This document shows positions 15,499-26,558 of a DNA stretch of 64,000 bases, piece after piece. The stretch comes from Acidiluteibacter ferrifornacis (lineage in GTDB: Bacteria; Bacteroidota; Bacteroidia; Flavobacteriales_E; Vicingaceae). The notes below the pieces were generated by a model. It was not told where the DNA came from and ran no database searches. It worked only from the letters and a program-made list of their open reading frames with translations. Made by a program: the position numbers and the translations under genes. Where the stretch lies: assembly GCF_009909615.1 (NCBI RefSeq), contig NZ_WWNE01000007.1, positions 1,052-65,051 on the forward strand. The letters are read 5' to 3'. The first letter of the stretch is position 1, and each line of letters starts with the position of its first letter.

Positions 15499-16788
15499 TT
15501 ATTTATACTCCCCTTCCCCCTCAGCAGCAACGCCCAACTCTACTTCCTCCATCTTTTCATAAGCCCCTTTTACCAAAACCTGCCCATTCATCAACATCGG
15601 CAACAACCAATCTCGAAGAGAGGAAAGCTGTTGGTTTTCTAGACCAATTTTATTTTGTTTCTCAAACATTGGATGAACGATTGAATTAAATTTCTTTAGC
15701 ACATTGTCATGTGGTTTGATTACTGATAATGAGAACAAATCACCTTTTGTAATTGAACCAAAAGTTGTTCCGTCACTGTTTCTCCTATCAAATACCTGTT
15801 TTAAATATCGTAATACACCATCTAAAGATGAAATTGAACCAATTTTACTGTTTAAGGCGGCTAAACCTCGACCAATGCAACAATCTTCATTTGCAATGTT
15901 CATTGTTCCAACAGGAGCTCGCACACTTAACAAGATATCTCCCTCTAGAGCATGTCTAGAAGGTTGAGTAGTAAATTTTCTATTTGTTGGAAATCGAGAA
16001 CCAAAGTCTGTGCAGCCTTGATAAAATACTTTTCCTATTCCCTCTTCATTGTAAGAATCTCCAGGAGGAGATTGACCCATCGTAATATTTGCAATGTCTT
16101 GTAATTCGACTACCTCCCAACCCTCAGGAATATCTCTTTTCAGCTCATCATTAAAAACCATTTTTCCGCCAGAAGATTTATAAGGTTTGCCATTTTTATC
16201 TGGATAATTGAATTGCACAAACCAATAATCATAAATCAATTTGGCCATGCCTTCCAACTCCGCATTAATTTTGTTGTTCAACTCTATTTTAGCATCTAAA
16301 TCTGAAAGTACTTTGGCGATTTTTGACCATTCAGACTTATCAGGATATGGAACTTCAAAATCTTGAATAGACTTCAATGATAGATTCTTAATTGTTGAAC
16401 CTGTTGCAACATTATAAAAATATTGTTGAACATCTTTCAGTTGAAAATAATAAAAGTAAAAACGATTAATCGGAGATTTAAAGTTTAAGTAAGCAGCACT
16501 TTTACCTAACATAACTTTTTCATTGTTGTAAAAAGCCATACTTCCAATTGAACCATTTATTCCCAATAATAAAGTATTTTGGTTAAGTTCAATATAATTC
16601 CTTTCAAAATCTTCGGTGGTTACAGTTTTCGTATTCTCATTTAATTCAATTTTTCCATGCTTTAAATTATTTCCATTAATAAAAAATATATTTGAATCTT
16701 CCTCATAGGTTGGTGTTCCATGTAAACCATCTCCAATTCTTGAACAGAGAGCTTTTAACGGTGTTTTTTGCCAAGATTTAATCCCCAT
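15499..16788 (-). CDS. hsdS: Type I restriction-modification specificity subunit
   Basis: This 429-residue protein has the classical two-part design: target-recognition domain 1 at about 1-150 and a central conserved coiled-coil around residues 155-185 (KIELNNKINAELEGMAKLI). Target-recognition domain 2 runs from about 215 to 370, starting WEVVELQDIANITMGQSPPG, and a second conserved helix pair ends near LRDWLLPMLMNGQ. It gives the sequence specificity of the HsdM/HsdR complex. It overlaps hsdM by 11 bp, as expected for coupled translation. Both recognition domains appear full length, so a functional methylase is likely. Confidence 0.93.
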   Translation of the reverse strand: MGIKSWQKTPLKALCSRIGDGLHGTPTYEEDSNIFFINGNNLKHGKIELNENTKTVTTEDFERNYIELNQNTLLLGINGSIGSMAFYNNEKVMLGKSAAYLNFKSPINRFYFYYFQLKDVQQYFYNVATGSTIKNLSLKSIQDFEVPYPDKSEWSKIAKVLSDLDAKIELNNKINAELEGMAKLIYDYWFVQFNYPDKNGKPYKSSGGKMVFNDELKRDIPEGWEVVELQDIANITMGQSPPGDSYNEEGIGKVFYQGCTDFGSRFPTNRKFTTQPSRHALEGDILLSVRAPVGTMNIANEDCCIGRGLAALNSKIGSISSLDGVLRYLKQVFDRRNSDGTTFGSITKGDLFSLSVIKPHDNVLKKFNSIVHPMFEKQNKIGLENQQLSSLRDWLLPMLMNGQVLVKGAYEKMEEVELGVAAEGEGEYK

Positions 16789-18406
16789 AACTCAACCCCT
16801 CCAAATTCTTTTCAATCTCTTTTTCCAACTTTTTCCCTTCAGCAAACAATTCGCTCAGATTGCTTTTAAAGACGTTTAGCTTTTCTTCAAATTCTTCTGG
16901 CGTTATGTCAACGTATTCTATTTTTACTTCAAAATATTGGCCTGCACTTAGACTGTAGTTTTTGGCTTTTATATCTTCGTAGCTCACCACCACAGAAAAA
17001 TCGTCTTCTGCGGTTTTGCTATTAAACACCTCTATAATTCGGTCTTCTTCAGCCTCAGAAAGTACCGTTTTTTGGTTCTTGCCTTCTTTTACTTTGGTTC
17101 CTAAATTAGAGGCATCTATCAATACCACATCGCATTTATTGCTTTTGTCTAAAAACAAAATGGAAACATTGGTGCCTGTAGTCGCAAAAATATTAGAGGG
17201 CATGCTTACCACACCTGCCAACATTTTACTTTCCACCATTTTCTCCCTTATCTTCTTGTCTATTCCGCTTTGGGCGGTTATAAAACCGGTGGGTACTACT
17301 ATGGCGGCCTTTCCTTTTTCACTTAATGAGTACATGATGTGCTGCAAAAACAACAAATAAATGGCCATGCTCTCTTTCTTACTCTTAGGCACATTGGGTA
17401 TGCCTGCAAAAAAACGTTCTTGGTTGGCTTTGCTATCTAACTCATCTCTATAATCAGAAAAATCCAACTTAAAAGGTGGGTTAGAAACAATGTAATCAAA
17501 TTTTTGAAGCTTACCGTCTTCCGATCTGTGGTATGGGTCTTTTATGGTATTGCCTTTTACCACATTGGGTAAAGAATGCACCAAGTCGTTCAATATTAAA
17601 TTCAACCGCAGTAAAGAAGAAGATTTTTGAGAAATATCTTGGGTGTAAATGGTGCTTTTGTTTTCGCCAATTTGATGGGCCAAATTCATCAACAAAGTTC
17701 CCGAGCCAGCACTTGGATCGTAACAAGTTACATTGCTTACCTCATTATTTACTAAACAACGCGCCATAATTTTAGAAACAGCATGCGGTGTAAAGTATTC
17801 GGCATATTTACCGCCACTATCCGAATTGTAATCCTTAATCAGGTATTCAAAAATAGCTGCAAAAAAGTCAAATTTTTCTTCAAATATTCCTTCAAAACTA
17901 AAGGTTATTAACTTATTAATAAGCGCCTTGCAAAAGGCATCTCTTTCGTCAGTTACGTATTTACTCACTTCTTCAAACAACACAATCTTTGTTTTTCCAG
18001 AAGTCAATACAGAGAATATTTCGCTGTTTTCTTTGGCAATGTCCAACAAGGTATTGTCGAACAATTTAGCAAAATTGGCTTCGTTTTGCAGGTCAAATAA
18101 GTTTTGTATAAAATGGTTCTTTCCTATTTTGGCCGTCTTTTCGCCCAATTCCATTTCTAACACTTCGTATTCATCATCACTGAATTTATTCAGTTCCAAT
18201 TCCCAATCTTTCCCTGCCTTTTCTAATCGAGGGTCGAGTTTTTTTATTTGGTAAACAAACTTGTCGTTCAATAATTTGTATAGAAAAACCTGTGTAATAA
18301 CCTTAAACTCGTTTCCATCATTCCCTAATCCATATTGAGCACAAACGCTTTTTAGGTCGTCAATTAAATCTTTAATCTGCTGCTCAAATTCCTTTGTTTT
18401 ACTCAT
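16778..18406 (-). CDS. hsdM: Type I restriction-modification N6-adenine methyltransferase subunit
   Basis: This 542-residue protein has an N-terminal HsdM helical domain to about residue 150. The catalytic N6-methyltransferase domain follows, with AdoMet motif I DPSAGSGTLL at about 230 and catalytic motif IV NPPF at about 309. A C-terminal helical tail, rich in Glu/Lys, contacts HsdS in the family. All key residues are present. With hsdS it should methylate an adenine in a bipartite site. It is separated from the broken hsdR by 82 bp that hold a REP-like stem-loop. Confidence 0.95.
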   Translation of the reverse strand: MSKTKEFEQQIKDLIDDLKSVCAQYGLGNDGNEFKVITQVFLYKLLNDKFVYQIKKLDPRLEKAGKDWELELNKFSDDEYEVLEMELGEKTAKIGKNHFIQNLFDLQNEANFAKLFDNTLLDIAKENSEIFSVLTSGKTKIVLFEEVSKYVTDERDAFCKALINKLITFSFEGIFEEKFDFFAAIFEYLIKDYNSDSGGKYAEYFTPHAVSKIMARCLVNNEVSNVTCYDPSAGSGTLLMNLAHQIGENKSTIYTQDISQKSSSLLRLNLILNDLVHSLPNVVKGNTIKDPYHRSEDGKLQKFDYIVSNPPFKLDFSDYRDELDSKANQERFFAGIPNVPKSKKESMAIYLLFLQHIMYSLSEKGKAAIVVPTGFITAQSGIDKKIREKMVESKMLAGVVSMPSNIFATTGTNVSILFLDKSNKCDVVLIDASNLGTKVKEGKNQKTVLSEAEEDRIIEVFNSKTAEDDFSVVVSYEDIKAKNYSLSAGQYFEVKIEYVDITPEEFEEKLNVFKSNLSELFAEGKKLEKEIEKNLEGLSYGD

Positions 18407-18445
18407 TTGTTATTTATGTGTGTTCTATTTTTAAAATGTAATTGT

Positions 18446-18485
18446 TCAATTGTCACACTGAGCGATAGTCGAAGTGGACAATTGA
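18446..18485. repeat. REP-like imperfect palindrome between hsdR and hsdM
   Basis: TCAATTGTC (18446-18454) pairs with GACAATTGA (18477-18485), and an inner CACT/AGTG pair surrounds GAGCGATAGTCGA. The core resembles the short interspersed CACTGAGCG...GTCGAAGTG palindromes common in Bacteroidota. It could fold in the hsdR-hsdM intergenic RNA and affect relative expression. Confidence 0.6.
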
Positions 18486-18488
18486 GAG

Positions 18489-21400
18489 TTAAGCAATATT
18501 CCCTCTATATTCATTTAAATATTCATTCACCAATAATTGGTTTACTCTTTTGTAATCAGCAGCTGCTAATGGCAACTTATTTTTAAACTGCTTTACTACG
18601 ATGCGTTGCAGCATTTTTTCAACATAATTTTCATTGTCCATTTGTCGGTTGTTTTGATCAATTTCTTGGTCAACTTCTGCTTTTAATTCCATTAAAACTT
18701 CAGCCAATTTTCGGTCTTTATCTGTTATCGGATCTTTCTCCATCAATCGTTTATGCAAGCGAGCGTATTTTTTATCGTCTTCATATTTCTGAGCCAACAA
18801 TTGGTTTTGTCTTTCCAACTCTACCGCTTTGTTGTAGATCACTTCTAGTTCTTGAATGTTGGAGTTCATTTCTTCTTTGCTTACTTCGTTTAAGTTCTTT
18901 TTCTTAAACAAGCGCTCCAATTCTTCTCGTAACGAGATAAACTCAGGGTCTCTAGGGTCAAAATTGCCACCCAAACTTTCTCGGGTTTTCTGCAATATAT
19001 TTTTTAACTGATCAGCCAAAACCAATTCTTCTTCTTTCACTTTCGTGAAGGAGAAAATAATGTCTTCCAAGGCAATGTTGAGTAAATTGGTATTGTCCAA
19101 ATCATTCTCCAATGCTTTTTTGGTATTGATTAAAGCCAATCGGTTGTTCGCTTCTCTAGAGAGTATCGCGAGTTTTCTAAAATCGAGTTCATTTAAAAAG
19201 TCATAATTGCCCGACAAACGAATCAGGTTGTACAAGCTTTTGGCATCACCTAACACCTTGGCAATCTTTAGCATTTCGCCATGGTCATTGATTTGTCTAA
19301 TCTGCTGAGAAAACACTTCTGCATCTTGGGTATTAAATTGAAATAAAGTGTCTTTTATCATTTCAATTTCTTGGGCAATCTCTTCAGGTTTTTTAAACAA
19401 ATCAGAATAGTGCTGCATTTCATCACCTAATTCACCTTGCAGCTCTTTAAAGTAATCTCGGTTTGTTTTATCAAACTCTTTTTCAATGTCAGCAAAATCT
19501 ACAATGTAACCGTATTTGTGGTCTTTATAGGTTCTATTTACGCGGGTTAAGGCTTGAAGTAAATTGTGTGCCTTAATCACTCTAGTGAGGTAAAGTTTTT
19601 TTAATCGTTTGGCATCAAAACCAGTTAGCAGCATGTTGTAGACAAAAAGGATATCAATTTTTCCTTCTTTAAATTCCTCAACTAAATCCTTTCTAAAATC
19701 CTTATCACCAACATCATGAAGTATCACTTCAGAACGAGTTACCATCCTATTGGCTTTCTCTTGCTCTCCATAGCTTAATTTAGGTTCAGCAGCCATGTTG
19801 TGCTGCGGCTCTGAATGGCCATAATTGGTTTCAAATATTTCTTGAAGCGCTTTTGCTTGCTTCGAAGAATCACAGATAACCATTCCACCAACAGAAGCAT
19901 CGCCAACCGTCATTCTAAATTGTTCTAAATCTTTTACAATATACTCCAACAGCGCTTCCACAAACTTTGGGTGTGCATAGGCATCTTCCTTTTTAAAAGA
20001 ACCTCTCATGGTTTTAAACTGCTCCAAGAGTTCTTTCAGTTTTAGTTTGTAATTGGTTTCTATTTCTTCTCGAATTAGGCGCAGTGTATACCCATCTTTA
20101 ATAGAGGCATTGTAATAATACTTGTGAATGTAATCGCCAAAAATCGATTTTGAATTGTAATCACTACCAAGTAGCGGAGTTCCTGTTAATCCAATTCGAA
20201 TGGCGTATGGATCAGACTCATTTAAATTCGATAAAAAGCTACCCGTTGGGTTATAACTTCGATGAACTTCATCTAAAAAGTAAATCCGTTGAATGTTTAC
20301 TTGGTAATCGGTGTTACGAACAACATCAGGGTCATCTTTAAATTTATGAATGTTTACAACGTAATTTCTGACTTCCCAGTATCGTTATGTATGACACTAG
20401 TCGATTTTATTTCTTTGGTAAAATCCTCTTTAGAATTAACATTGTGAACCACCAAACCACGGCTTCTGAACTCAAGGCTTGCTTGGGTTAATAAATCTAA
20501 TCGGTCTACAATAAAGTAAAACTTAGGCACAATGCCTTTGTTGCGAAAATAGTTCGTGAGGTATTTTACATTATAAAACGCCAATGCTGTTTTACCACTG
20601 CCTTGAGTGTGCCATATAATGCCATTTTTTATTCCTTCATCTAGTTTTTGTTCAATAGCTTTGGTTGCAAACAGTTGCGGATATCGCATGATGTGCTTTT
20701 GCAAATCCTCAGATTCTATTGGTTTTACATAGGTTATGGCATATTCCAATAGAAAAGCCAAACGGTCTTTTTTAAATAGAGAGGTACAAATTCGATTGGT
20801 TGGTGTGTTTGATTTTTTATTTGTTTGATATTCAGCAGAACTTTTAATCCCCAACAAGTTATTGTCTTTTAAAACCCAATTTTCATCTGCATCACTTAAT
20901 CCAGAAAAAATAGAATGATTAAAAGTATGTTCCTCTCTGAAGTAATTAAAATGAGGTTTTCCATAAGATGGCGTAGCGTAGAAGGCCCCTTGTAATGGTT
21001 GAATTGCGCCATTATCATACTCCATATTATTGGAGAATACCATCAGTTGCGTTATGTTCACAAAGTTTCTAAACTTCTTGTTTTGAAAACGAGAGATAAT
21101 CCGTTTCCGTTCTGCTTGTACTCCATCTAAATTGTTAGGCTTTTTTACTTCTATGAATGCTAAAGGCATTCCATTTATAAGCAGAACAATATCAGGTCTA
21201 AAATTGTCATCATCCTTTTGGTAAGGCAATTCCGTTACGACATGAAAATCGTTGTTTTCAAAGTTCTCAAAATCAATCAAACGGTTACCTGATCGTTCTA
21301 CTAACTTTTCATAAAAGGCTTTTCCTAAATCTTCATTCTCTAAACTTAGTGCTACTTCATCATAAAAACGTTTAATATCGTTGGCATCAAATTCAGGGTT

Positions 21401-21550
21401 TATTCGAGCAATGCTTTCGTTAAAAATAGAGGTAAAGATATTGGTGCTTTTGTCCCACGTAGTATTTTTCAACGAAAGGTATTTGTACCCCAATTGAATT
21501 AGATGAAGTATCGTAGGGATTTTTACTCTCGTGTCTTCGTTGAATTCCAT
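18489..21550 (-). pseudogene. hsdR: Type I restriction subunit HsdR, interrupted by one frameshift
   Basis: Two adjacent reading frames (21550-20354 and 20360-18489) make one full-length HsdR of about 1020 residues. The first holds the nuclease core (PDIVLLI ... FIEVKKPN, about 120-145) and Walker A TQGSGKT near 313. The second continues with VVNIHKFKDD, the DEVH box in FLDEVHRSY and GLTGTPLL. The frame breaks after SEIT: ATT ACG TTG TAA should read ATT ACN GTT GTA, so one base is missing between 20360 and 20361. No other stop occurs up to 18489. HsdR would be the DNA translocase and nuclease of the complex. A truncated 398-residue product keeps the nuclease but lacks most of the motor. A sequencing error or phase-variable slip remains possible. 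Confidence 0.9.
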
Positions 21551-21800
21551 TAATAATCTAGTTTAGTTCTTTTCAGTAGTTGAGTGCTAAGATAGTGAAT
21601 TCTATCTATTTGTTATTGATTTCACCTCTAGCAAAAAAAGGTTAATTACAATAAGGAATAACACTCTATTTCCCACGAAATAATTCACATTACGCGAAGT
21701 ACTCGATTTAACCACACAGAGTGCTTTCATTTAGTACCGAAATACACTATTTCCCTTTCACATTTTGTACAATTTAAGTGCGTTCACAAATTGCTTAACA
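21551..21800. other. AT-rich intergenic stretch upstream of hsdR
   Basis: No gene is supported here. The minus-strand promoter of hsdR should lie within roughly the first 80 bp, where I see only an imperfect TATCTTAG near 21585. The stretch separates the R-M operon from the GIY-YIG/tRNA array. Confidence 0.45.
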
Positions 21801-21832
21801 AAAAACCTTCAATCTCTCGATAAAAGGTTTTT
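21801..21832 (-). terminator. Terminator-like hairpin of array unit 1
   Basis: AAAAACCTT (21801-21809) pairs with AAGGTTTTT (21824-21832). It lies just downstream (minus strand) of the unit 1 tRNA-Pro-like fragment, the same place the terminator of the intact tRNA-Pro occupies. Confidence 0.55.
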
Positions 21833-21837
21833 CTTAG

Positions 21838-21893
21838 TCGGGGTGGTCAAGCTCAAAGCTAGACGAGATGACCGGACTACCGCTTCATCCACC
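21838..21893 (-). pseudogene. tRNA-Pro-derived fragment, array unit 1
   Basis: On the minus strand this keeps the D-arm stretch GTAGTCCGGTCATC and the 3' acceptor end CCACCCCGA of the tRNA-Pro at 24273-24347. The anticodon arm is missing and the T-arm is replaced by another stem. It cannot make a Pro tRNA. The stop codon of the neighbouring GIY-YIG gene (21877-21879) lies inside the D-arm part. Confidence 0.7.
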
Positions 21894-22110
21894 TTTCAAT
21901 TCCTATATGTTTGATTTTTGATTCTAATTTTCTCGCCTCACTTCGATTTTCAATTTCTAATAATTGGACTAACTCCCAAGGACTTCCTGATTGGGTTGAT
22001 TTTGAACGACCTGAATTATGCCTTTTTAAACGATCATCAATATCTTGTGTTTCCCCAAAATAATACCTACCCGTGGTTTGACTTTTTAAAATATATACGA
22101 AATGAGCCAT
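21877..22110 (-). CDS. Small GIY-YIG nuclease, array copy 1
   Basis: This 77-residue single-domain GIY-YIG protein starts with FVYILKSQTTGRYYFG (the first part of the GIY...YIG pair appears as VYI...YYFG). Next come a conserved Arg/His helix (DRLKRHNSG), a PWELV strand and the basic helix RSEARKLESKIK with the catalytic-type Glu region. Stand-alone proteins of this size resemble the UvrC-type nuclease domain and are common near tRNA and rRNA genes in Bacteroidota. The last codons (RWMKR) and the stop TAG run into tRNA-Pro-derived sequence. Two close paralogues lie at 22287 and 23933. Confidence 0.85.
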   Translation of the reverse strand: MAHFVYILKSQTTGRYYFGETQDIDDRLKRHNSGRSKSTQSGSPWELVQLLEIENRSEARKLESKIKHIGIERWMKR

Positions 22111-22191
22111 CTAATTGAAATTGAAGGAACAATTTAGTAAAATCATCAACTAAGTTCCTAACAAATAAACTCAAACTTTGGACAAAAGAAA
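22111..22191. repeat. 81-bp spacer repeat upstream of GIY-YIG copy 1 (second copy at 24128-24208)
   Basis: This sequence is found again at 24128-24208 with a single mismatch seen (AGTTCC versus AGATCC). It sits directly before each GIY-YIG start on the minus strand and shows that the whole unit, not only the gene, was duplicated. Confidence 0.88.
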
Positions 22192-22218
22192 AGCCTTGTA
22201 CAAATTGTACAAGGCTTT
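22190..22218 (-). terminator. Perfect 14-bp palindromic terminator of array unit 2
   Basis: AAAGCCTTGTACAA (22190-22203) and TTGTACAAGGCTTT (22205-22218) are perfect complements with one base between. It lies 6 bp downstream (minus strand) of the unit 2 tRNA-like element. Confidence 0.65.
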
Positions 22219-22224
22219 CCTTGG

Positions 22225-22303
22225 TCGGGGTGGTCAAGCTCAAAGCTAGACGACCTTCCAGTCCATGACTGGACGCGATGACCGGACTACCGCTTCATCC
22301 ACC
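22225..22303 (-). pseudogene. Chimeric tRNA-Pro-like element, array unit 2
   Basis: On the minus strand the D-arm GTAGTCCGGTCATCGCG, the variable AGGTCG and the 3' end CCACCCCGA match the intact tRNA-Pro. The anticodon arm is replaced by TCCAG / TCATGGA / CTGGA, and the T-arm by GTCTAGC / GCTTGAC with a TTTGA loop. The 5' acceptor strand is GGTGG instead of CGGGGTG, and U33 is lost. A folded RNA is possible but a normal tRNA is not. The stop codon of GIY-YIG copy 2 lies inside it. Confidence 0.65.
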
Positions 22304-22520
22304 TTTTAATTCCTATACGTTTGATTTTTGATTCTAATTTTCTCGCCTCACTTCGATTTTCTATTTCTAATAATTGAACTAACTCCCAAGGACTTCCTGA
22401 TTTGGTTGATTTTGAACGACCTGAATTATGCCGTTGTATACGATCTTCAACATCTTGCGTTTCACCACAATAATACCTACCCGTAGTTTGACTTTTTAAA
22501 ATATATACGAAATGAGCCAT
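22287..22520 (-). CDS. Small GIY-YIG nuclease, array copy 2
   Basis: This 77-residue protein is nearly identical to copy 1 (differences such as YYCG for YYFG, QDVEDRIQRHN and a K/H change near the end). It has the same start, the same PWELV and RSEARKLES motifs, and the same ending in tRNA-derived sequence. Twelve bases upstream of its ATG the usual spacer is replaced by the left end of an ISAon1-like element, so its original promoter and spacer are lost. It may now be silent or read from the IS. Confidence 0.83.
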   Translation of the reverse strand: MAHFVYILKSQTTGRYYCGETQDVEDRIQRHNSGRSKSTKSGSPWELVQLLEIENRSEARKLESKIKRIGIKRWMKR

Positions 22521-22592
22521 CTAATTGAAATTGGGTCATGACCAAATGTTGTGTGTGAATTAAATTAATATTCCGATTTTCGTTTAAAAAAA

Positions 22593-22946
22593 TTGGAACT
22601 TTCAAAAGATACTTTAAGTTTAATACTTCCTGAATTACTCATTTCTCATTTTGATTTAATTTCTTCTCGAACTGAGGGAGAAGTAGTTCATTTGAATTTT
22701 GAAGAAAAGAAGGCTGTTCCCGAAGAAGAAAAAGAGCGGATTTTAATTGGTCATGGATTTCATAAAGTCATTACAATTCAAGACTTTCCTTTGCGAGGAA
22801 AGACGGTATTATTGCACATTAAGCGGCGTAGGTCGTTAGATAAATCAACAAATCAAATTGTTCAGAGAGATTGGAATTTAGTAGCAAAAGGCAGTAGAAT
22901 GACGAATGATTTCGCCGCTTTTTTAAAAGAAATTAATCAATACTAA
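22593..22946 (+). CDS. ISAon1-like transposase, N-terminal region
   Basis: This 117-residue protein has the layout of the ISAon1 transposase N-terminal ORF: a helix, LPELLISHFDLI, an acidic stretch, then PLRGKTVLLHIKRRR, a basic beta segment probably used in DNA binding. The Cys residues of a classical ISL3 zinc finger are not visible. It ends at 22946, overlapping the next reading frame by 20 bp around a run of T followed by AAAA. The start at 22593 is a non-ATG codon (TTG). Confidence 0.8.
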   Translation: MELSKDTLSLILPELLISHFDLISSRTEGEVVHLNFEEKKAVPEEEKERILIGHGFHKVITIQDFPLRGKTVLLHIKRRRSLDKSTNQIVQRDWNLVAKGSRMTNDFAAFLKEINQY

Positions 22947-23919
22947 AGATTTAGACTGTAATTCTTTAGGCGATATTTATGGTGTCAACGGAAAGAAATT
23001 ACAGCGCCAGTATCGGGATTATTTAAGTGACTTTAAAAAATGGGATCAATTAACTCATGCCAGAGATTGGTTAATTTTTCCGCAGAATATTGGCAAACGA
23101 CTATCAATAGACGAAGTAGCACTTTCACAAGGAGAACTTTATACCATTATTACAAATAAAAAAGCAAAAGGTAGAGCCGGCTCTATTGTAGCTATAGTTA
23201 AAGGAACAACTTCTTCAGAGGTGATCCAAAGGGTTAATAAAATAGCCACATCTAAGCGAAGAAAAGTAGAGGAAATTACCTTGGATATGGCAGGTTCTAT
23301 GAAACAAATTGTAAAGGTCTGTTTTCCTTTAGCTAAACAAGTTACAGATAGATTTCATGTTCAAAAATTAGCATCAGAAGCGGTACAAGAGGTAAGAATA
23401 AAATACAGGTGGAAATCAATTGATAAAGAGAATAGAGCTATTGCAGAGGCTAAAACATTAGGCAAAACCTACAAAGAAGAAATGTTATCCAATTCTGACA
23501 CTGTTAGACAGCTCTTAGCACGAAGTAGGTATTTACTTTTCAAAAGCCCTGATAAATGGACAGTAAAACAGAAAGAAAGGTCAAAAATATTATTTGATTT
23601 ATATCCAAAAATCAAAACTGCTTATCAACTAAGTAACCAACTTAGAATAATTTATAACTCTTCAATAGAAAAAGGGGTGGCAATGACAAAATTGGCACAA
23701 TGGTACAATGAGGTCGAAAACTCAAATTTTAAAAGTTTTAAGTCAATAATGAACACCATATCATTGAACTACAAAACCATTCTAAATTATTTTGATGATA
23801 GAAGCACAAATGCAGCAGCAGAATCTTTCAATGCAAAGATTAAAGCATTTAGATCTAGGTTTAGAGGAGTGAAAAACGTAGAATTTTTTCTTTTTAGACT
23901 GACTAATATTTATGCTTAA
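22927..23919 (+). CDS. ISAon1-like ISL3-family transposase, catalytic part
   Basis: About 330 codons are open from 22927. The sequence contains LSIDEVALSQGELYTIIT (first catalytic Asp), TLDMAGSM...VTDRFHVQKL (second Asp region) and STNAAAESFNAKIKAFRSR (catalytic Glu), the DDE pattern of ISL3 transposases. There is no ATG before the Met in TLDMAG, and the first GTG is at 23221, after the first catalytic Asp. Full activity therefore needs either a shift from the upstream frame (codon phase change of +1) near 22920-22946, or an unusual start. It could be a programmed shift or decay. Confidence 0.82.
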   Translation, partial: KKLINTKDLDCNSLGDIYGVNGKKLQRQYRDYLSDFKKWDQLTHARDWLIFPQNIGKRLSIDEVALSQGELYTIITNKKAKGRAGSIVAIVKGTTSSEVIQRVNKIATSKRRKVEEITLDMAGSMKQIVKVCFPLAKQVTDRFHVQKLASEAVQEVRIKYRWKSIDKENRAIAEAKTLGKTYKEEMLSNSDTVRQLLARSRYLLFKSPDKWTVKQKERSKILFDLYPKIKTAYQLSNQLRIIYNSSIEKGVAMTKLAQWYNEVENSNFKSFKSIMNTISLNYKTILNYFDDRSTNAAAESFNAKIKAFRSRFRGVKNVEFFLFRLTNIYA

Positions 23920-23932
23920 ACACAACATTTAG

Positions 23933-24127
23933 TCATGATCCTAATTTTCTCGCCTCACTTCGATTTTCAATTTCTAATAATTGGACTAACTCCCAAGGAC
24001 TTCCTGATTTGGTTGATTTTGAACGACCTGAATTATGCCTTTCTAAACGATCTTCAATATCTTGTGTTTCCCCACAATAATACCTACCCGTGGTTTGACT
24101 TTTTAAAATATATACGAAATGAGCCAT
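23933..24127 (-). pseudogene. GIY-YIG nuclease, array copy 3, 3' truncated by the IS
   Basis: Residues 1-61 match copies 1 and 2, up to RSEARKL. The last codons (GS) and the stop TGA come from the inverted repeat of the ISAon1-like element. About 50 bp of the gene's 3' end and the adjoining tRNA-like fragment are gone. The catalytic N-terminal half remains, but the terminal basic helix is lost. It lies just downstream of the intact tRNA-Pro and its terminator, with the shared 81-bp spacer. Confidence 0.85.
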
Positions 24128-24208
24128 CTAATTGAAATTGAAGGAACAATTTAGTAAAATCATCAACTAAGATCCTAACAAATAAACTCAAACTTTGGAC
24201 AAAAGAAA
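24128..24208. repeat. 81-bp spacer repeat upstream of GIY-YIG copy 3
   Basis: Second copy of the spacer at 22111-22191, one mismatch. It is followed here by about 27 bp of unrelated sequence before the tRNA-Pro terminator. Confidence 0.85.
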
Positions 24209-24235
24209 TGCTTCAATTCCAATTCTTGGAAACAA

Positions 24236-24267
24236 AAAAGCCTTCTATCTTTCAATAGAAGGCTTTT
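24236..24267 (-). terminator. Terminator of tRNA-Pro
   Basis: AAAAGCCTTCTAT (24236-24248) pairs with its exact complement at 24255-24267, with a 6-base loop. On the minus strand it ends in a T run and lies 5 bp past the tRNA-Pro 3' end. Confidence 0.85.
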
Positions 24268-24272
24268 CTTGG

Positions 24273-24347
24273 TCGGGGTGGCAGGATTCGAACCTGCGAC
24301 CTCCTGCTCCCAAAGCAGGCGCGATGACCGGACTACGCTACACCCCG
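24273..24347 (-). tRNA. tRNA-Pro (anticodon TGG)
   Basis: The cloverleaf is complete on the minus strand: acceptor CGGGGTG/CACCCCG with discriminator A, D-arm GTAGTCCGGTCATCGC, anticodon stem CCTGC/GCAGG with loop TTTGGGA, and T-arm GCAGG-TTCGAAT-CCTGC. CCA is not encoded. It is the only intact member of a family of tRNA-Pro fragments in this region. Confidence 0.96.
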
Positions 24348-24375
24348 ATTTAATTTTAAAACAGTTTTCTCTGTT
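24320..24375. repeat. 56-bp direct repeat covering the tRNA-Pro 5' half and upstream flank (second copy 24428-24483)
   Basis: The block from the D-arm/anticodon junction through the tRNA 5' end and 28 bp of flank is repeated exactly at 24428-24483. The upstream flank probably holds the tRNA promoter, so both copies may be transcribed. Confidence 0.9.
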
Positions 24376-24379
24376 ATTT

Positions 24380-24455
24380 TTTTTTCAAGCTTAGACCGAA
24401 CCTACAATCTTCCAGTCTAAAACTGGACGCGATGACCGGACTACGCTACACCCCG
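24380..24455 (-). pseudogene. tRNA-Pro-like pseudogene with altered anticodon arm
   Basis: The 5' half (acceptor CGGGGTG, D-arm) is identical to tRNA-Pro. The anticodon arm is TCCAG / TTTTAGA / CTGGA, which would give anticodon TTA (pairing with UAA). After AGATTGTAGGTTCGG the sequence diverges and the 3' acceptor strand CACCCCG is absent, so a working tRNA is unlikely. The anticodon stem is the same as in the unit 2 chimera, which links these fragments. Confidence 0.6.
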
Positions 24456-24506
24456 ATTTAATTTTAAAACAGTTTTCTCTGTTTCTTCAGTCTTTTCAAT
24501 TCCTTG

Positions 24507-24593
24507 CGGAGGGAGGGGGATTCGAACCCCCGGATCCCTTACGAGATCGGCAGTTTAGCAAACTGCTGGTTTCAGCCACTCACCCATCCCTCC
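24507..24593 (-). tRNA. tRNA-Ser (anticodon GCT)
   Basis: An 87-nt class II tRNA on the minus strand: acceptor GGAGGGA/TCCCTCC with discriminator G, D-arm GAGTGGCTGAAACC, anticodon stem GCAGT/ACTGC with loop TTGCTAA, a long variable arm (CGATCTCGTAAGGGATCC region) and T-loop TTCGAAT. Confidence 0.95.
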
Positions 24594-24661
24594 TAGCTTT
24601 CCGTCTCTTTTCTACTTCACTAAACACAACCGAAATTGTGTCCATCCCTCAAACGGGAGAG

Positions 24662-24669
24662 CAAAAGTA
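24662..24669 (-). promoter_or_regulatory. Candidate promoter element for tRNA-Ser
   Basis: TACTTTTG on the minus strand is an exact TANNTTTG -7 element, about 69 bp upstream of the tRNA 5' end. No clear -33 TTTG is present. Confidence 0.4.
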
Positions 24670-24782
24670 ATAATCTATTTTAAATCTAAAAGCATAAATG
24701 AATATTTTTTTACTTTTTTTATTTTCTCTCCAATAGAACCAGAAAAAATTCGCTTTTATCCGTTGTAAATAAACCTATCAAT

Positions 24783-24790
24783 TATCTTTG
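24783..24790 (+). promoter_or_regulatory. Candidate promoter element for the ABC importer operon
   Basis: TATCTTTG is an exact match to the Bacteroidota -7 element, 22 bp before the ATG of the binding-protein gene. The -33 region has only a weak TTG. Confidence 0.45.
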
Positions 24791-24812
24791 TCTTGCATCA
24801 AATGCCAAACAA

Positions 24813-26558
24813 ATGTTCCATCTCATCCGTATTCCCTTCTTCGCTGTTGTTGTCTGCTTACTGCTTTTTGCTTGCAACACACCACCCGCTAATCAACCCA
24901 AAGAGGTAACACTACATATTCGTGAAACTGCAGGTGCTAGCTCCATCCACCCTGTTTTGTATAGTGATGAGTTATCCGGAAATCTCAGCACTTATATTTT
25001 TCAAACGTTAACGGTAATCGATTTCAATACACTAGAACTCTCTCCACTATTGGCCGACTCTCTTCCTCGAGTATATAAAGGAGAAAATGGTCAGATGACT
25101 TATTTCTACACAATTAGAAAAGAAGCAAAATGGGATAATGGGCAACCCATCACAGCGAAGGATGCAGAATTTGCGGTAAAATTGAATATCATTCCCAATC
25201 CTGAAGGATACCTATTGAATTCATTCAATAAAACCATTGTTGATTTTGAGTACCACCCGACGGATTCCACTGCCTTTTATATTCATACTTCAGGAGAATA
25301 TAATTCTGGTGAATTTCTTTGTGGCGACATTAGTTTTGTTCCTCAATACCTTTATGACAGCACCAATTACCTGAACCAATTTACGGTTCAACAAATTGCA
25401 GCACACCACGACTCTTTAGCTAAAGACAGCGGAATGATTGCCTTTTTAAATCAAGTTAATGATTTCGAATATAAAATCAATCCAAAATACATCAGTGGAT
25501 CAGGTCCATATAAGTTGACTAAATTCAACAGTGAAAGTAGAATTGAGCTAACTAAGAAAAAAGATTGGTGGGGCAATCAAGTTAAAAATGCTGGAGTTGA
25601 ATTTGAAGCGAATGTTGATAAAATCGTGATTCACATCATTCCTGATGAAACTACTGCACTTGCCGCCTTAAAGAATGGTGACATCGATCTCATCAGAGGA
25701 GTGACTCCTAAGGAATTTTCTGAAATTCAAAAGAATGAAACTTTCAAAGACCAATTTAATTTCGTGACTAGTGAGATATTGGCCTACTATGCTATTGGCA
25801 TGAATCTCAATCACCCCATTTTAAAAATCAAGAATAATAGAAAGGCATTGGCTCACTTGTTAGATGTAGATAAAATTATAGACATCGTTGCCTACGGTTA
25901 TGGAGAACGCATAATAGGTCCATTGCCGCTAAAATATGAAAAACAATACAATAAAAACATCACCCCCTATCCTTTTGACCCAGAAAAAGCAAAACACTAC
26001 CTGTCTATAGAAGGGTGGAAAGACCTCGATGGAGATGGGGTATTAAACAATACTTTGAATGGAGTAAAATCAAAGTTTGAATTGGATTATTTATTCAATT
26101 CAGGGAATGAAAGCCGCAAAATGATAGGCTTAATCCTTAAAGAGGAAGCCGCTAAGGTTGGGGTTCAAATAAATCTCAAAGAAGTGGAATGGTCCATCTT
26201 TTTGGAAAATACCCGAAATAGCAACTTCGACTTATGTTTTACAGGAAAAATGTTTGCTCCTTTACCCAGAAATCATGAAAGCATTTTCCATTCCCGTGCC
26301 ATTGACAATGGCTCCAATTACATAGGTTTTCGTTCGGAGGAGGCGGATCAACTGATTGATTCCCTCAACAAAACTACAGATCCTAGTGTGCGTTTAGCCT
26401 TAAATTATCGTTTTCAGGAAATACTCCATGAGGAATTGCCTTATCTCTTTTTATATGCTCCCTTAGAGCGAATGATTATTTCTAAAAGGTTCACCAATTA
26501 TTCTTTGTCCTCAATGCGTCCAGGATTCTGGGCACCAGGATTTAAACTCAGCGAATAA
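24813..26558 (+). CDS. Peptide/oligopeptide ABC transporter substrate-binding lipoprotein
   Basis: This 581-residue protein has a lipoprotein signal peptide with lipobox LLLFAC, Cys at 21. It belongs to the SBP_bac_5 family: the N-terminal WDNGQPITAKDAEFAVK motif (about 108-125) is the classical family signature, followed by two-lobed domain features and a C-terminal RFQEILHEELPYLFLY. It would capture peptides or related solutes outside the inner membrane and hand them to the two permeases encoded next; the start codon of the first permease follows its stop directly. Substrate class is inferred from family only. Confidence 0.9.
   Translation: MFHLIRIPFFAVVVCLLLFACNTPPANQPKEVTLHIRETAGASSIHPVLYSDELSGNLSTYIFQTLTVIDFNTLELSPLLADSLPRVYKGENGQMTYFYTIRKEAKWDNGQPITAKDAEFAVKLNIIPNPEGYLLNSFNKTIVDFEYHPTDSTAFYIHTSGEYNSGEFLCGDISFVPQYLYDSTNYLNQFTVQQIAAHHDSLAKDSGMIAFLNQVNDFEYKINPKYISGSGPYKLTKFNSESRIELTKKKDWWGNQVKNAGVEFEANVDKIVIHIIPDETTALAALKNGDIDLIRGVTPKEFSEIQKNETFKDQFNFVTSEILAYYAIGMNLNHPILKIKNNRKALAHLLDVDKIIDIVAYGYGERIIGPLPLKYEKQYNKNITPYPFDPEKAKHYLSIEGWKDLDGDGVLNNTLNGVKSKFELDYLFNSGNESRKMIGLILKEEAAKVGVQINLKEVEWSIFLENTRNSNFDLCFTGKMFAPLPRNHESIFHSRAIDNGSNYIGFRSEEADQLIDSLNKTTDPSVRLALNYRFQEILHEELPYLFLYAPLERMIISKRFTNYSLSSMRPGFWAPGFKLSE

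What the first reader, a model, noticed from the sequence alone, without database searches (positions are those of the whole stretch)
21838..24347. Tandem GIY-YIG nuclease cassettes interleaved with fragments of tRNA-Pro
Three near-identical 77-residue GIY-YIG genes lie in tandem just downstream of an intact tRNA-Pro. Each intact unit reads, on the minus strand, tRNA-like element, terminator hairpin, 81-bp spacer, GIY-YIG gene. The stop codons of copies 1 and 2 lie inside the D-arm of the next tRNA-Pro fragment. Seen directly: the repeated spacer, the repeated terminators and the shared GTAGTCCGGTCATC block. Known: GIY-YIG domains include homing endonucleases, and small GIY-YIG genes are frequent next to tRNA and rRNA genes in this phylum. 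Inference: the cassette may be a homing-type mobile unit that targets the tRNA-Pro gene and carries a piece of it, so each insertion displaces or regenerates the tRNA.
Basis: partly seen in the sequence, partly recalled or inferred. Interest (0 to 1): 0.75.

Follow-up and report, generated by a model that had tools for sequence, protein, structure and literature searches.

The report
tRNA-gene-linked GIY-YIG nuclease cassettes
A tiny DNA-cutting gene sits behind a transfer-RNA gene with broken copies of that same tRNA gene around it, one of a large, apparently undescribed family of probably mobile cassettes in Bacteroidota and relatives in which most branches keep to one kind of tRNA gene.

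Summary
It is one case of a wide pattern. An intact tRNA lies <=220 bp upstream on the same strand in 41 of 103, 58 of 79 and 21 of 29 homologous loci (three samples sharing six loci); none on the opposite strand in the two samples checked. Behind the gene a remnant of the same tRNA follows (79 of 95 loci), usually with an arm or loop replaced by a G+C-rich hairpin (66 of 79). Protein clades largely follow tRNA identity (25 changes; shuffled minimum 45). Empty sites exist, also for the window's own locus (7 of 7 syntenic relatives). In Chryseobacterium the native terminator follows the last remnant in 4 of 4 filled loci, as expected if the cassette enters the tRNA gene and rebuilds its 3' half. 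Best reading: a homing-type cassette specific for one tRNA gene, near phage SegB in logic but with a bare Slx1/UPF0213-like catalytic domain and added hairpins. Cleavage and mobility are inferred. Found in none of nine literature searches.

The parts
24506..24593 (-). tRNA-Ser(GCT), conserved neighbour used for synteny
24385..24455 (-). 5'-side tRNA-Pro remnant; anticodon arm replaced by hairpin TCCAGTTTTAGACTGGA (24411-24427), decayed 3' half; preceded by a copy of the tRNA leader (24456-24483, original 24348-24375)
   Evidence: (D3)
24270..24347 (-). intact tRNA-Pro(TGG)
24234..24269 (-). terminator hairpin after the intact tRNA, near identical to the terminator of empty locus L287
23933..24127 (-). 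GIY-YIG copy 3, truncated at 64 codons by the IS
22533..23941 (.). ISL3-type insertion sequence, limits read by eye (ends imperfect inverted repeats; frames 22593-22946 and 23221-23919 on +, the second with the ISL3 transposase domain)
   Evidence: (I1)
22287..22520 (-). GIY-YIG copy 2, 77 aa, complete
22224..22303 (-). tRNA-Pro remnant: D arm, anticodon arm replaced by hairpin TCCAGTCATGGACTGGA (22257-22273), T arm replaced by hairpin-like TCTAGCTTTGAGCTTGA (22234-22250), acceptor 3' strand
22186..22222 (-). terminator hairpin of the remnant
   Evidence: (I8)
22111..22185 (-). spacer shared with the one before copy 3
   Evidence: D1
21877..22110 (-). GIY-YIG copy 1, 77 aa, complete
21838..21893 (-). 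last tRNA-Pro remnant (anticodon arm absent, T arm as in the other remnant)
21798..21837 (-). terminator hairpin of the last remnant (limits approximate)
   Evidence: fold of 21792-21842

Best explanation
The window holds a decayed array of a homing-type cassette specific for the tRNA-Pro gene. Shown by sequence: the gene for a minimal GIY-YIG nuclease (its family is under purifying selection) is inserted at a tRNA gene so that an intact tRNA remains and remnants of the same tRNA lie beside the gene; filled and empty alleles of the same locus exist in different species; protein clades largely keep to one tRNA; most remnants carry replacement hairpins. Inferred: the nuclease cuts the DNA of its own tRNA gene in a loop region (anticodon or T loop, where most hairpins sit), perhaps when it is folded as a hairpin in single-stranded DNA, as its nearest folds (UPF0213, branched-DNA nuclease Slx1) suggest. 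Repair of the break from a cassette-bearing allele copies the cassette in; the cassette brings the tRNA 3' half plus a terminator, so the tRNA is rebuilt, and the old 3' half is left as the remnant. Because the intact tRNA stays cuttable, repeated breaks cause tandem amplification and gene conversion of tRNA 3' ends and terminators. The hairpin in the remnant removes the cut site or marks the repair.
For: tRNA adjacency 41 of 103 loci (sample chosen by protein similarity to the window only), 58 of 79, 21 of 29; median gap 49 and 52.5 bp in the first two; opposite-strand tRNAs in the same windows 0 in the first two. Same-tRNA remnant downstream in 79 of 95 loci at alignment score 30 or more, 71 at 40 or more; tRNAs of another kind reach this in 122 and 28 of 760 trials. 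Foreign hairpin in 66 of 79 remnants: 59 in the anticodon arm, 26 T arm, 4 D arm (282 of 1990 random windows hold a hairpin). Hairpin pairing kept by compensating change, 0 of 5000 shuffles, relatedness not controlled. Clade follows tRNA: 25 changes for 99 rows and 18 kinds, shuffled minimum 45; the window's protein sits with five other Pro-linked rows (support 91, not starred, quick tree, many forks open). Empty sites. Native-type terminator behind the last remnant in 4 of 4 filled Chryseobacterium loci; an unrelated terminator behind the intact tRNA in 2 of these 4. Arrays of 5, 8 and 10 units, the last unit of the first two cut short. Terminator pairs at least 70% alike within locus in 36 of 64, against 8-13% across loci. 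Tyr, Tyr, Arg, His and Glu of the domain invariant or nearly so; dN/dS 0.04-0.24 in the 16 of 23 pairs with finite dS; model pLDDT 95.
Against: No cleavage or mobility data. The protein is a bare catalytic domain; known GIY-YIG homing enzymes carry DNA-binding domains (PMC2988022 passages). The filled allele keeps an intact tRNA, which should also be cut. In Pro, Lys and about half of the other loci the terminators of intact tRNA and remnant are alike, which a plain tandem duplication explains as well. In 49 of 103 loci of sample 1 no intact tRNA is near, and 16 of 95 loci with a tRNA upstream show no clear remnant. In 8 of 103 loci the intact tRNA lies downstream instead; in the four of these read a remnant lies upstream. 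One Pro-linked protein (L065, anticodon CGG) falls far from the Pro clade. Not found in phage or plasmid records or viral contigs. Hairpins also occur in tRNA remnants without the gene. Copies 1 and 3 of the window differ by 5 nonsynonymous and 0 synonymous changes. One genome per species, so no within-species presence/absence.
Confidence: 0.57

Rival explanations
1. Palindrome-mobilising system, like REP elements with their RAYT transposases: the nuclease acts on the hairpins, and tRNA (and tmRNA) loops are only favoured landing sites for hairpins.
For: Hairpins covary in the Asn lineage and most, not all, share TCC..GGA ends across tRNA kinds; hairpins sit in remnants that have no GIY-YIG gene, e.g. 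tRNA-Val and tRNA-fMet remnants of the same genome; three sister clades without tRNA are flanked by shared repeats in 21 of 26 loci, many REP-like, and in the own genome 5 of 13 CTGAGC-N-GTCGAAG sites lie within about 0.4 kb of the GIY-YIG gene at C18:488291; nearest folds UPF0213 and Slx1.
Against: Does not by itself explain why protein clades largely keep to one tRNA, why the tRNA 3' half and terminator are duplicated, or why gene and tRNA keep strand and spacing. Repeat sharing was tested against other loci, not against other genes of the same genomes.
Confidence: 0.22
2. Tandem duplication of a tRNA gene with a resident, domesticated GIY-YIG gene: no homing; surplus tRNA copies are inactivated by hairpins, and the gene serves the cell (for instance a tRNA-like RNA plus a structure-specific or tRNA-cutting nuclease, as a regulator or toxin with antidote).
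For: Terminators at least 70% alike in 36 of 64 loci; purifying selection; C-terminus read through the remnant in a kept frame, 41 of 116 reading frames of sample 2 end with a tRNA-coded QLVR-type tail; a GIY-YIG domain fused to a TrmH-like tRNA methyltransferase was taken as a hint of a role in RNA metabolism (PMC1564403, passage).
Against: Foreign terminator behind the intact tRNA with the native-type one behind the remnant in L233 and L234; empty sites and decayed copies; I recall no GIY-YIG enzyme shown to cut RNA.
Confidence: 0.14
3. Remnants of integrase-type islands in tRNA genes (attL/attR) that happen to carry the gene.
For: tRNA 3' half duplicated, intact tRNA kept on one side, as at tRNA attB sites (recalled).
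Against: Array units are about 360-550 bp with one small gene, no room for an integrase; hairpins inside the tRNA copies; clade-tRNA match of the nuclease itself.
Confidence: 0.04

Closest known systems
SegB of phages T4/T6 (freestanding GIY-YIG homing endonuclease in the phage tRNA cluster)
   Same: GIY-YIG gene beside tRNA genes; tandem amplification of a tRNA-plus-nuclease unit (718 bp in T6) with microhomology between tRNA 5' end and the gene's 3' end; many tRNA kinds (PMC13096335, abstract and passages; PMC2988022, passages)
   Different: Here on bacterial chromosomes, a bare domain of about 70 residues, clades tied to one tRNA, remnants with replacement hairpins; no phage or plasmid match to the window protein and no viral-contig match to the Asn group
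UPF0213 proteins (1zg2, 1ywl)
   Same: Best solved relatives by sequence (E 2.3e-13 and 1e-11); 1zg2 is also the best fold match; small size
   Different: No tRNA link known to me (recalled); the window proteins match PF01541 and weakly T5orf172, and 15 of 27 aligned relatives match the group I intron endonuclease model, far below its cut-off where the cut-off was shown
Slx1 structure-specific nuclease
   Same: Next best fold (TMq 0.67-0.75) and sequence; cuts branched DNA (entry titles)
   Different: Slx1 is longer and works with Slx4
REP elements and RAYT transposases
   Same: Short palindromes linked to a small nuclease gene (recalled; compare)
   Different: RAYTs are HUH transposases (recalled); here a GIY-YIG domain and tRNA-loop sites
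Group I introns in tRNA anticodon loops
   Same: Insertion near the anticodon, GIY-YIG enzymes in such introns (recalled; PMC3984707 seen in the listing with the start of its abstract only)
   Different: No intron RNA family found in the window region; the tRNA is continuous

Membership tests
GIY-YIG nuclease superfamily | PF01541 over curated cut-off with conserved Tyr/Tyr/Arg/His/Glu and the fold | tested here: met
Freestanding GIY-YIG homing endonuclease (Seg type) | gene lies outside introns, beside its target | tested here: inconclusive
   position outside introns and beside a tRNA gene; that the tRNA gene is the target is inferred
Freestanding GIY-YIG homing endonuclease (Seg type) | DNA-binding module next to the catalytic domain | tested here: not met
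   77 aa, single domain
Freestanding GIY-YIG homing endonuclease (Seg type) | filled and empty alleles at the same site | tested here: met
   between species only:
Freestanding GIY-YIG homing endonuclease (Seg type) | cleaves the empty allele; super-Mendelian inheritance | not testable with these tools
   needs enzyme assay and crosses
tRNA-site integrative elements | tyrosine/serine integrase in the element | tested here: not met
   array units of about 360-550 bp with one small gene; in the window the only other frames with a domain match belong to the IS
REP/RAYT | HUH (Y1) transposase | tested here: not met
   the cassette proteins match GIY-YIG models only, apart from three marginal NCBIfam matches
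REP/RAYT | dispersed palindromes beyond the gene's locus | tested here: inconclusive
   TCCCG..CGGGA at 16 places in the own genome, reversed control 5; of the contexts read, some are tRNA remnants and several look like chance
Group I intron | intron RNA at the insertion | tested here: not met
   no intron family to E 0.5 in 20000-26500

The most novel reading that the evidence does not exclude
A new kind of mobile element: single-domain GIY-YIG nucleases that recognise folded, cloverleaf-like single-stranded DNA of one given tRNA or tmRNA gene, cut in its loops, and spread together with short hairpins that are put into those loops; a sister branch of the same enzymes does the same with REP-like palindromes between genes. 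It would be a GIY-YIG counterpart of REP/RAYT, with a tRNA-targeting branch that rebuilds its target.
Probability: 0.3. Interest if true: 0.92.

Novelty: new variant of a known kind. Interest (0 to 1): 0.8.

Why it matters
A nuclease family largely sorted by tRNA identity (69 of 118 complete genomes drawn from the window's phylum carry matches to the model of mostly tRNA-linked members at E 1e-12) would be a natural set of tRNA-gene-specific cutters without a separate DNA-binding domain, and a cellular parallel to phage SegB amplification. It would account for many small GIY-YIG genes and tRNA pseudogenes of these genomes, and it makes recognition of folded DNA by a 70-residue nuclease directly testable.

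Tried and rejected
Looked for phage, plasmid or viral-contig carriers: none (window protein in phages and plasmids; Asn-group alignment in viral contigs: 50 stretches matched a pattern, none a relative). Looked for an intron or known RNA at the window site: only the two tRNAs reach their gathering scores. Integrase islands: rejected on unit size. A simple terminator scan listed none, but folding shows the hairpins. Literature: nine searches listed no paper that I recognised, from titles and starts of abstracts, as describing tRNA-linked GIY-YIG cassettes or tRNA hairpins in Bacteroidota; lists were capped, and the 2006 GIY-YIG phylogenomic paper (PMC1564403, passages only) holds neither 'Bacteroid' nor 'UPF0213' in its main text. 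The library holds open-licence papers only, so absence is weak.

Limits and dropped rows: one search read only 38 of the loci (files were split) and was redone. That the 103 loci cover every place was checked by eye. The samples overlap: five loci of sample 2 (L125, L126, L127, L129, L134) and one of sample 3 (L309) are also in sample 1. L039, L050 and L027 were left out as duplicates; one search also left out L051 and L057 and used 64 loci with a remnant ending at the tRNA 3' end; one search also left out L057. One search used 79 remnants with score 30 or more; 13 of them show no hairpin by its rule, although some of these do by eye (L124, L038, L042). The random windows were 110 nt long and not required to hold tRNA sequence, so they are a rough background. 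Sample 2 was drawn with four tRNA-Asn-linked proteins, and sample 3 is the best-scoring 29 loci for a model of 27 mostly tRNA-linked proteins, so only sample 1 is free of that choice. The tree has 72 columns for 172 rows, many open forks, and holds three Asn-group contigs twice (L027/L129, L050/L127, L051/L126); without Asn the match still holds. In the Chryseobacterium draw 7 of 25 empty sites do not show the common terminator. Some 'array' counts (10 of 103, 26 of 79) include split genes; with a stricter rule they are 8 of 103 and 22 of 79.
Full report
Observation. The window's minus strand reads tRNA-Ser, a tRNA-Pro remnant, intact tRNA-Pro(TGG), terminator, spacer, GIY-YIG copy 3 (64 codons), an ISL3-type IS, GIY-YIG copy 2, remnant, terminator, spacer, GIY-YIG copy 1, remnant, terminator. 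Two genes are complete; the third and its unit are damaged by the IS. The remnants are tRNA-Pro with the anticodon arm replaced by TCCAGTCATGGACTGGA or TCCAGTTTTAGACTGGA, or absent, and in the two downstream ones the T arm replaced by a weaker hairpin. A pattern for these anticodon hairpins matches at only two places in the 3.5-Mb genome.

Generality. A search of 60 genomes (own one and relatives) with the window protein gave matches in 45. I fetched the places listed there (together with loci) and analysed 103 loci. In 41 an intact tRNA lies 220 bp or less upstream on the same strand (median 49 bp), in 8 one lies 300 bp or less downstream, 5 are at contig ends and 49 have none; no tRNA lies on the opposite strand in these windows. 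Two further samples gave 58 of 79 (named genomes; 1 downstream, 13 at contig ends, 7 none) and 21 of 29 (3 downstream, 2 at contig ends, 3 none). Six loci are shared with sample 1. Loci with two or more near-full GIY-YIG hits number 8 of 103 and 22 of 79; the largest arrays have 10 units of 457 bp behind tRNA-Met, 8 of 366-379 bp behind another tRNA-Met and 5 of 379 bp behind tRNA-Asn. In a draw of 118 genomes of the phylum, 69 carry matches to the A1 model at E 1e-12 or better. Named hosts include Vicingaceae, Pedobacter, Chryseobacterium, Algoriphagus, Marinilabilia, Balneolaceae, and Chlorobiota, Melioribacter and Caldithrix MAGs; single Thioalkalivibrio and Omnitrophota MAG records may be contaminants.

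Remnant and hairpin. Behind the gene lies a remnant of the same tRNA: 79 of 95 loci reach alignment score 30 and 71 reach 40, against 122 and 28 of 760 trials with a tRNA of another kind. Of the 79 remnants, 66 carry a foreign G+C-rich hairpin of at least 6 pairs; of the 89 hairpins 59 are in the anticodon arm, 26 in the T arm and 4 in the D arm. 282 of 1990 random windows of these loci hold such a hairpin. TCCCGN4-8CGGGA occurs 182 times in the sample-2 loci longer than 3 kb, 106 of them within 200 nt behind a GIY-YIG domain. In the main tRNA-Asn lineage, 70 of 70 inserts found with a pattern allowing 12-22 nt are 16 nt long (some loci counted twice). They replace 10 nt of the anticodon arm, which keeps the reading frame that ends in the remnant. 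The 27 distinct forms keep pairing by compensating changes (51 of 81 inner cells paired, shuffled mean 31.6, maximum 45; relatedness not controlled). 41 of 116 reading frames of sample 2 end with a tRNA-coded QLVR-type tail.

Specificity and selection. On a quick tree of 172 domains, 99 rows with a tRNA of 18 kinds need 25 changes of tRNA kind (300 shuffles: minimum 45); without Asn 23 (minimum 34). The window's protein falls with five tRNA-Pro rows (support 91); one further Pro row (L065) falls elsewhere. Of 20 loci without a detected tRNA that were scanned with Rfam, 5 lie behind tmRNA: four in one clade and L120 in another. Of 23 cross-locus pairs 16 have finite dS and dN/dS 0.04-0.24; 7 are saturated. 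The model of copy 2 (pLDDT 95) is nearest to UPF0213, Slx1 and, more weakly, the I-TevI catalytic domain (sequence).

Empty sites. At the window's own locus, 7 distinct relatives keep tRNA-Ser and tRNA-Pro beside the transporter gene, and none has a GIY-YIG hit in the fetched stretch behind it; L287 has nearly the same terminator behind its tRNA-Pro as the window. In the draw from the genus of Algoriphagus litoralis (40 genomes, 28 matches, two of them weak), 8 loci have tRNA-Lys beside the anchor gene: 4 with the gene (one broken) and 4 without. In the draw from the genus of Chryseobacterium formosus (40 genomes, 30 loci fetched), 4 have the gene (one single, one double, two decayed) and 26 have none. 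The flank behind the last intact tRNA could be read in 25 of these 26; 18 show the GACTTACA-type terminator (one with a single change). That terminator stands behind the last remnant in 4 of 4 filled loci (L232, L233, L234, and L150, which shows the double locus L238 in full), while behind the intact tRNA it stands in only 2 of 4; in L233 and L234 an unrelated terminator follows the intact tRNA. That is what insertion into the tRNA gene with rebuilding of its 3' half predicts. Elsewhere the two flanks are at least 70% alike in 36 of 64 loci (across loci 8-13%), which needs duplication or gene conversion in addition.

Mechanism. Shown: position, remnants, hairpins, empty and filled alleles between species, selection, clade-tRNA match. 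Inferred: cutting of the tRNA gene in a loop, repair-driven copying, amplification by repeated breaks, and protection by the hairpin. The main difficulty is that the filled allele keeps an intact, presumably cuttable tRNA; arrays and homogenised 3' ends may be the visible result of that. Phage T6 SegB gives a measured precedent for tandem tRNA-nuclease amplification by homologous recombination (PMC13096335, abstract and passages read).

Rival. A palindrome-mobilising role is real competition: hairpins sit in remnants without the gene, and three sister clades without tRNA share repeats between both flanks in 21 of 26 loci, in the own genome with 5 of 13 sites within 0.4 kb of one gene. The two readings can be joined, and this is my novel case.

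Novelty. The nine searches named in Tried and rejected listed no description. In logic this is a variant of freestanding homing endonucleases, differing in host, target, domain make-up and hairpins; it fails the DNA-binding-module feature of the Seg type and so is not filed as a member. On re-checking, confidence in the best explanation went from 0.58 to 0.57 and the duplication rival from 0.13 to 0.14, because 16 of 95 loci lack a clear remnant and the RNA hint in PMC1564403 had been left out.

Noticed in passing
L079, L092, L100, L109 and L120: GIY-YIG genes on the same strand behind tmRNA (Rfam RF00023), about 120-510 nt away; the first four fall in one clade, L120 in another.
   Followed up: partly
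L096 (G000:C18:488291) and 25 further loci of three sister clades: GIY-YIG genes without tRNA; 21 of 26 share repeats between both flanks, many REP-like (CCTTCGACAAGCTCAGGGTGACA type), and 5 of 13 such sites of the own genome surround one gene.
   Followed up: partly
L270, L271 (own genome, C19 and C21): Solo tRNA-Val remnant and two tandem tRNA-fMet remnants with TCCCGATAGCTATCGGGA in the T loop, without a GIY-YIG gene in the stretch fetched.
   Followed up: partly
L039 1440-1820: Three tandem 127-bp copies of leader plus hairpin-bearing tRNA-Asn remnant upstream of the intact tRNA-Asn, no GIY-YIG gene in them.
   Followed up: no
L043, L087, L068, L025: Reverse order: hairpin-bearing remnant, GIY-YIG gene, then the intact tRNA.
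   Followed up: partly
L285 downstream of tRNA-Pro: A tRNA-Pro 3' end fragment without a GIY-YIG gene, possibly a relic of a lost cassette.
   Followed up: no
window 22533-23941: ISL3-type IS with its coding sequence in more than one frame, inserted in the array, with adjacent cassette sequence missing.
   Followed up: partly
window 16778-21550: Type I restriction-modification-like genes (methylase- and helicase-like frames) next to the array, judged from the translations only.
   Followed up: no
   Followed up: no
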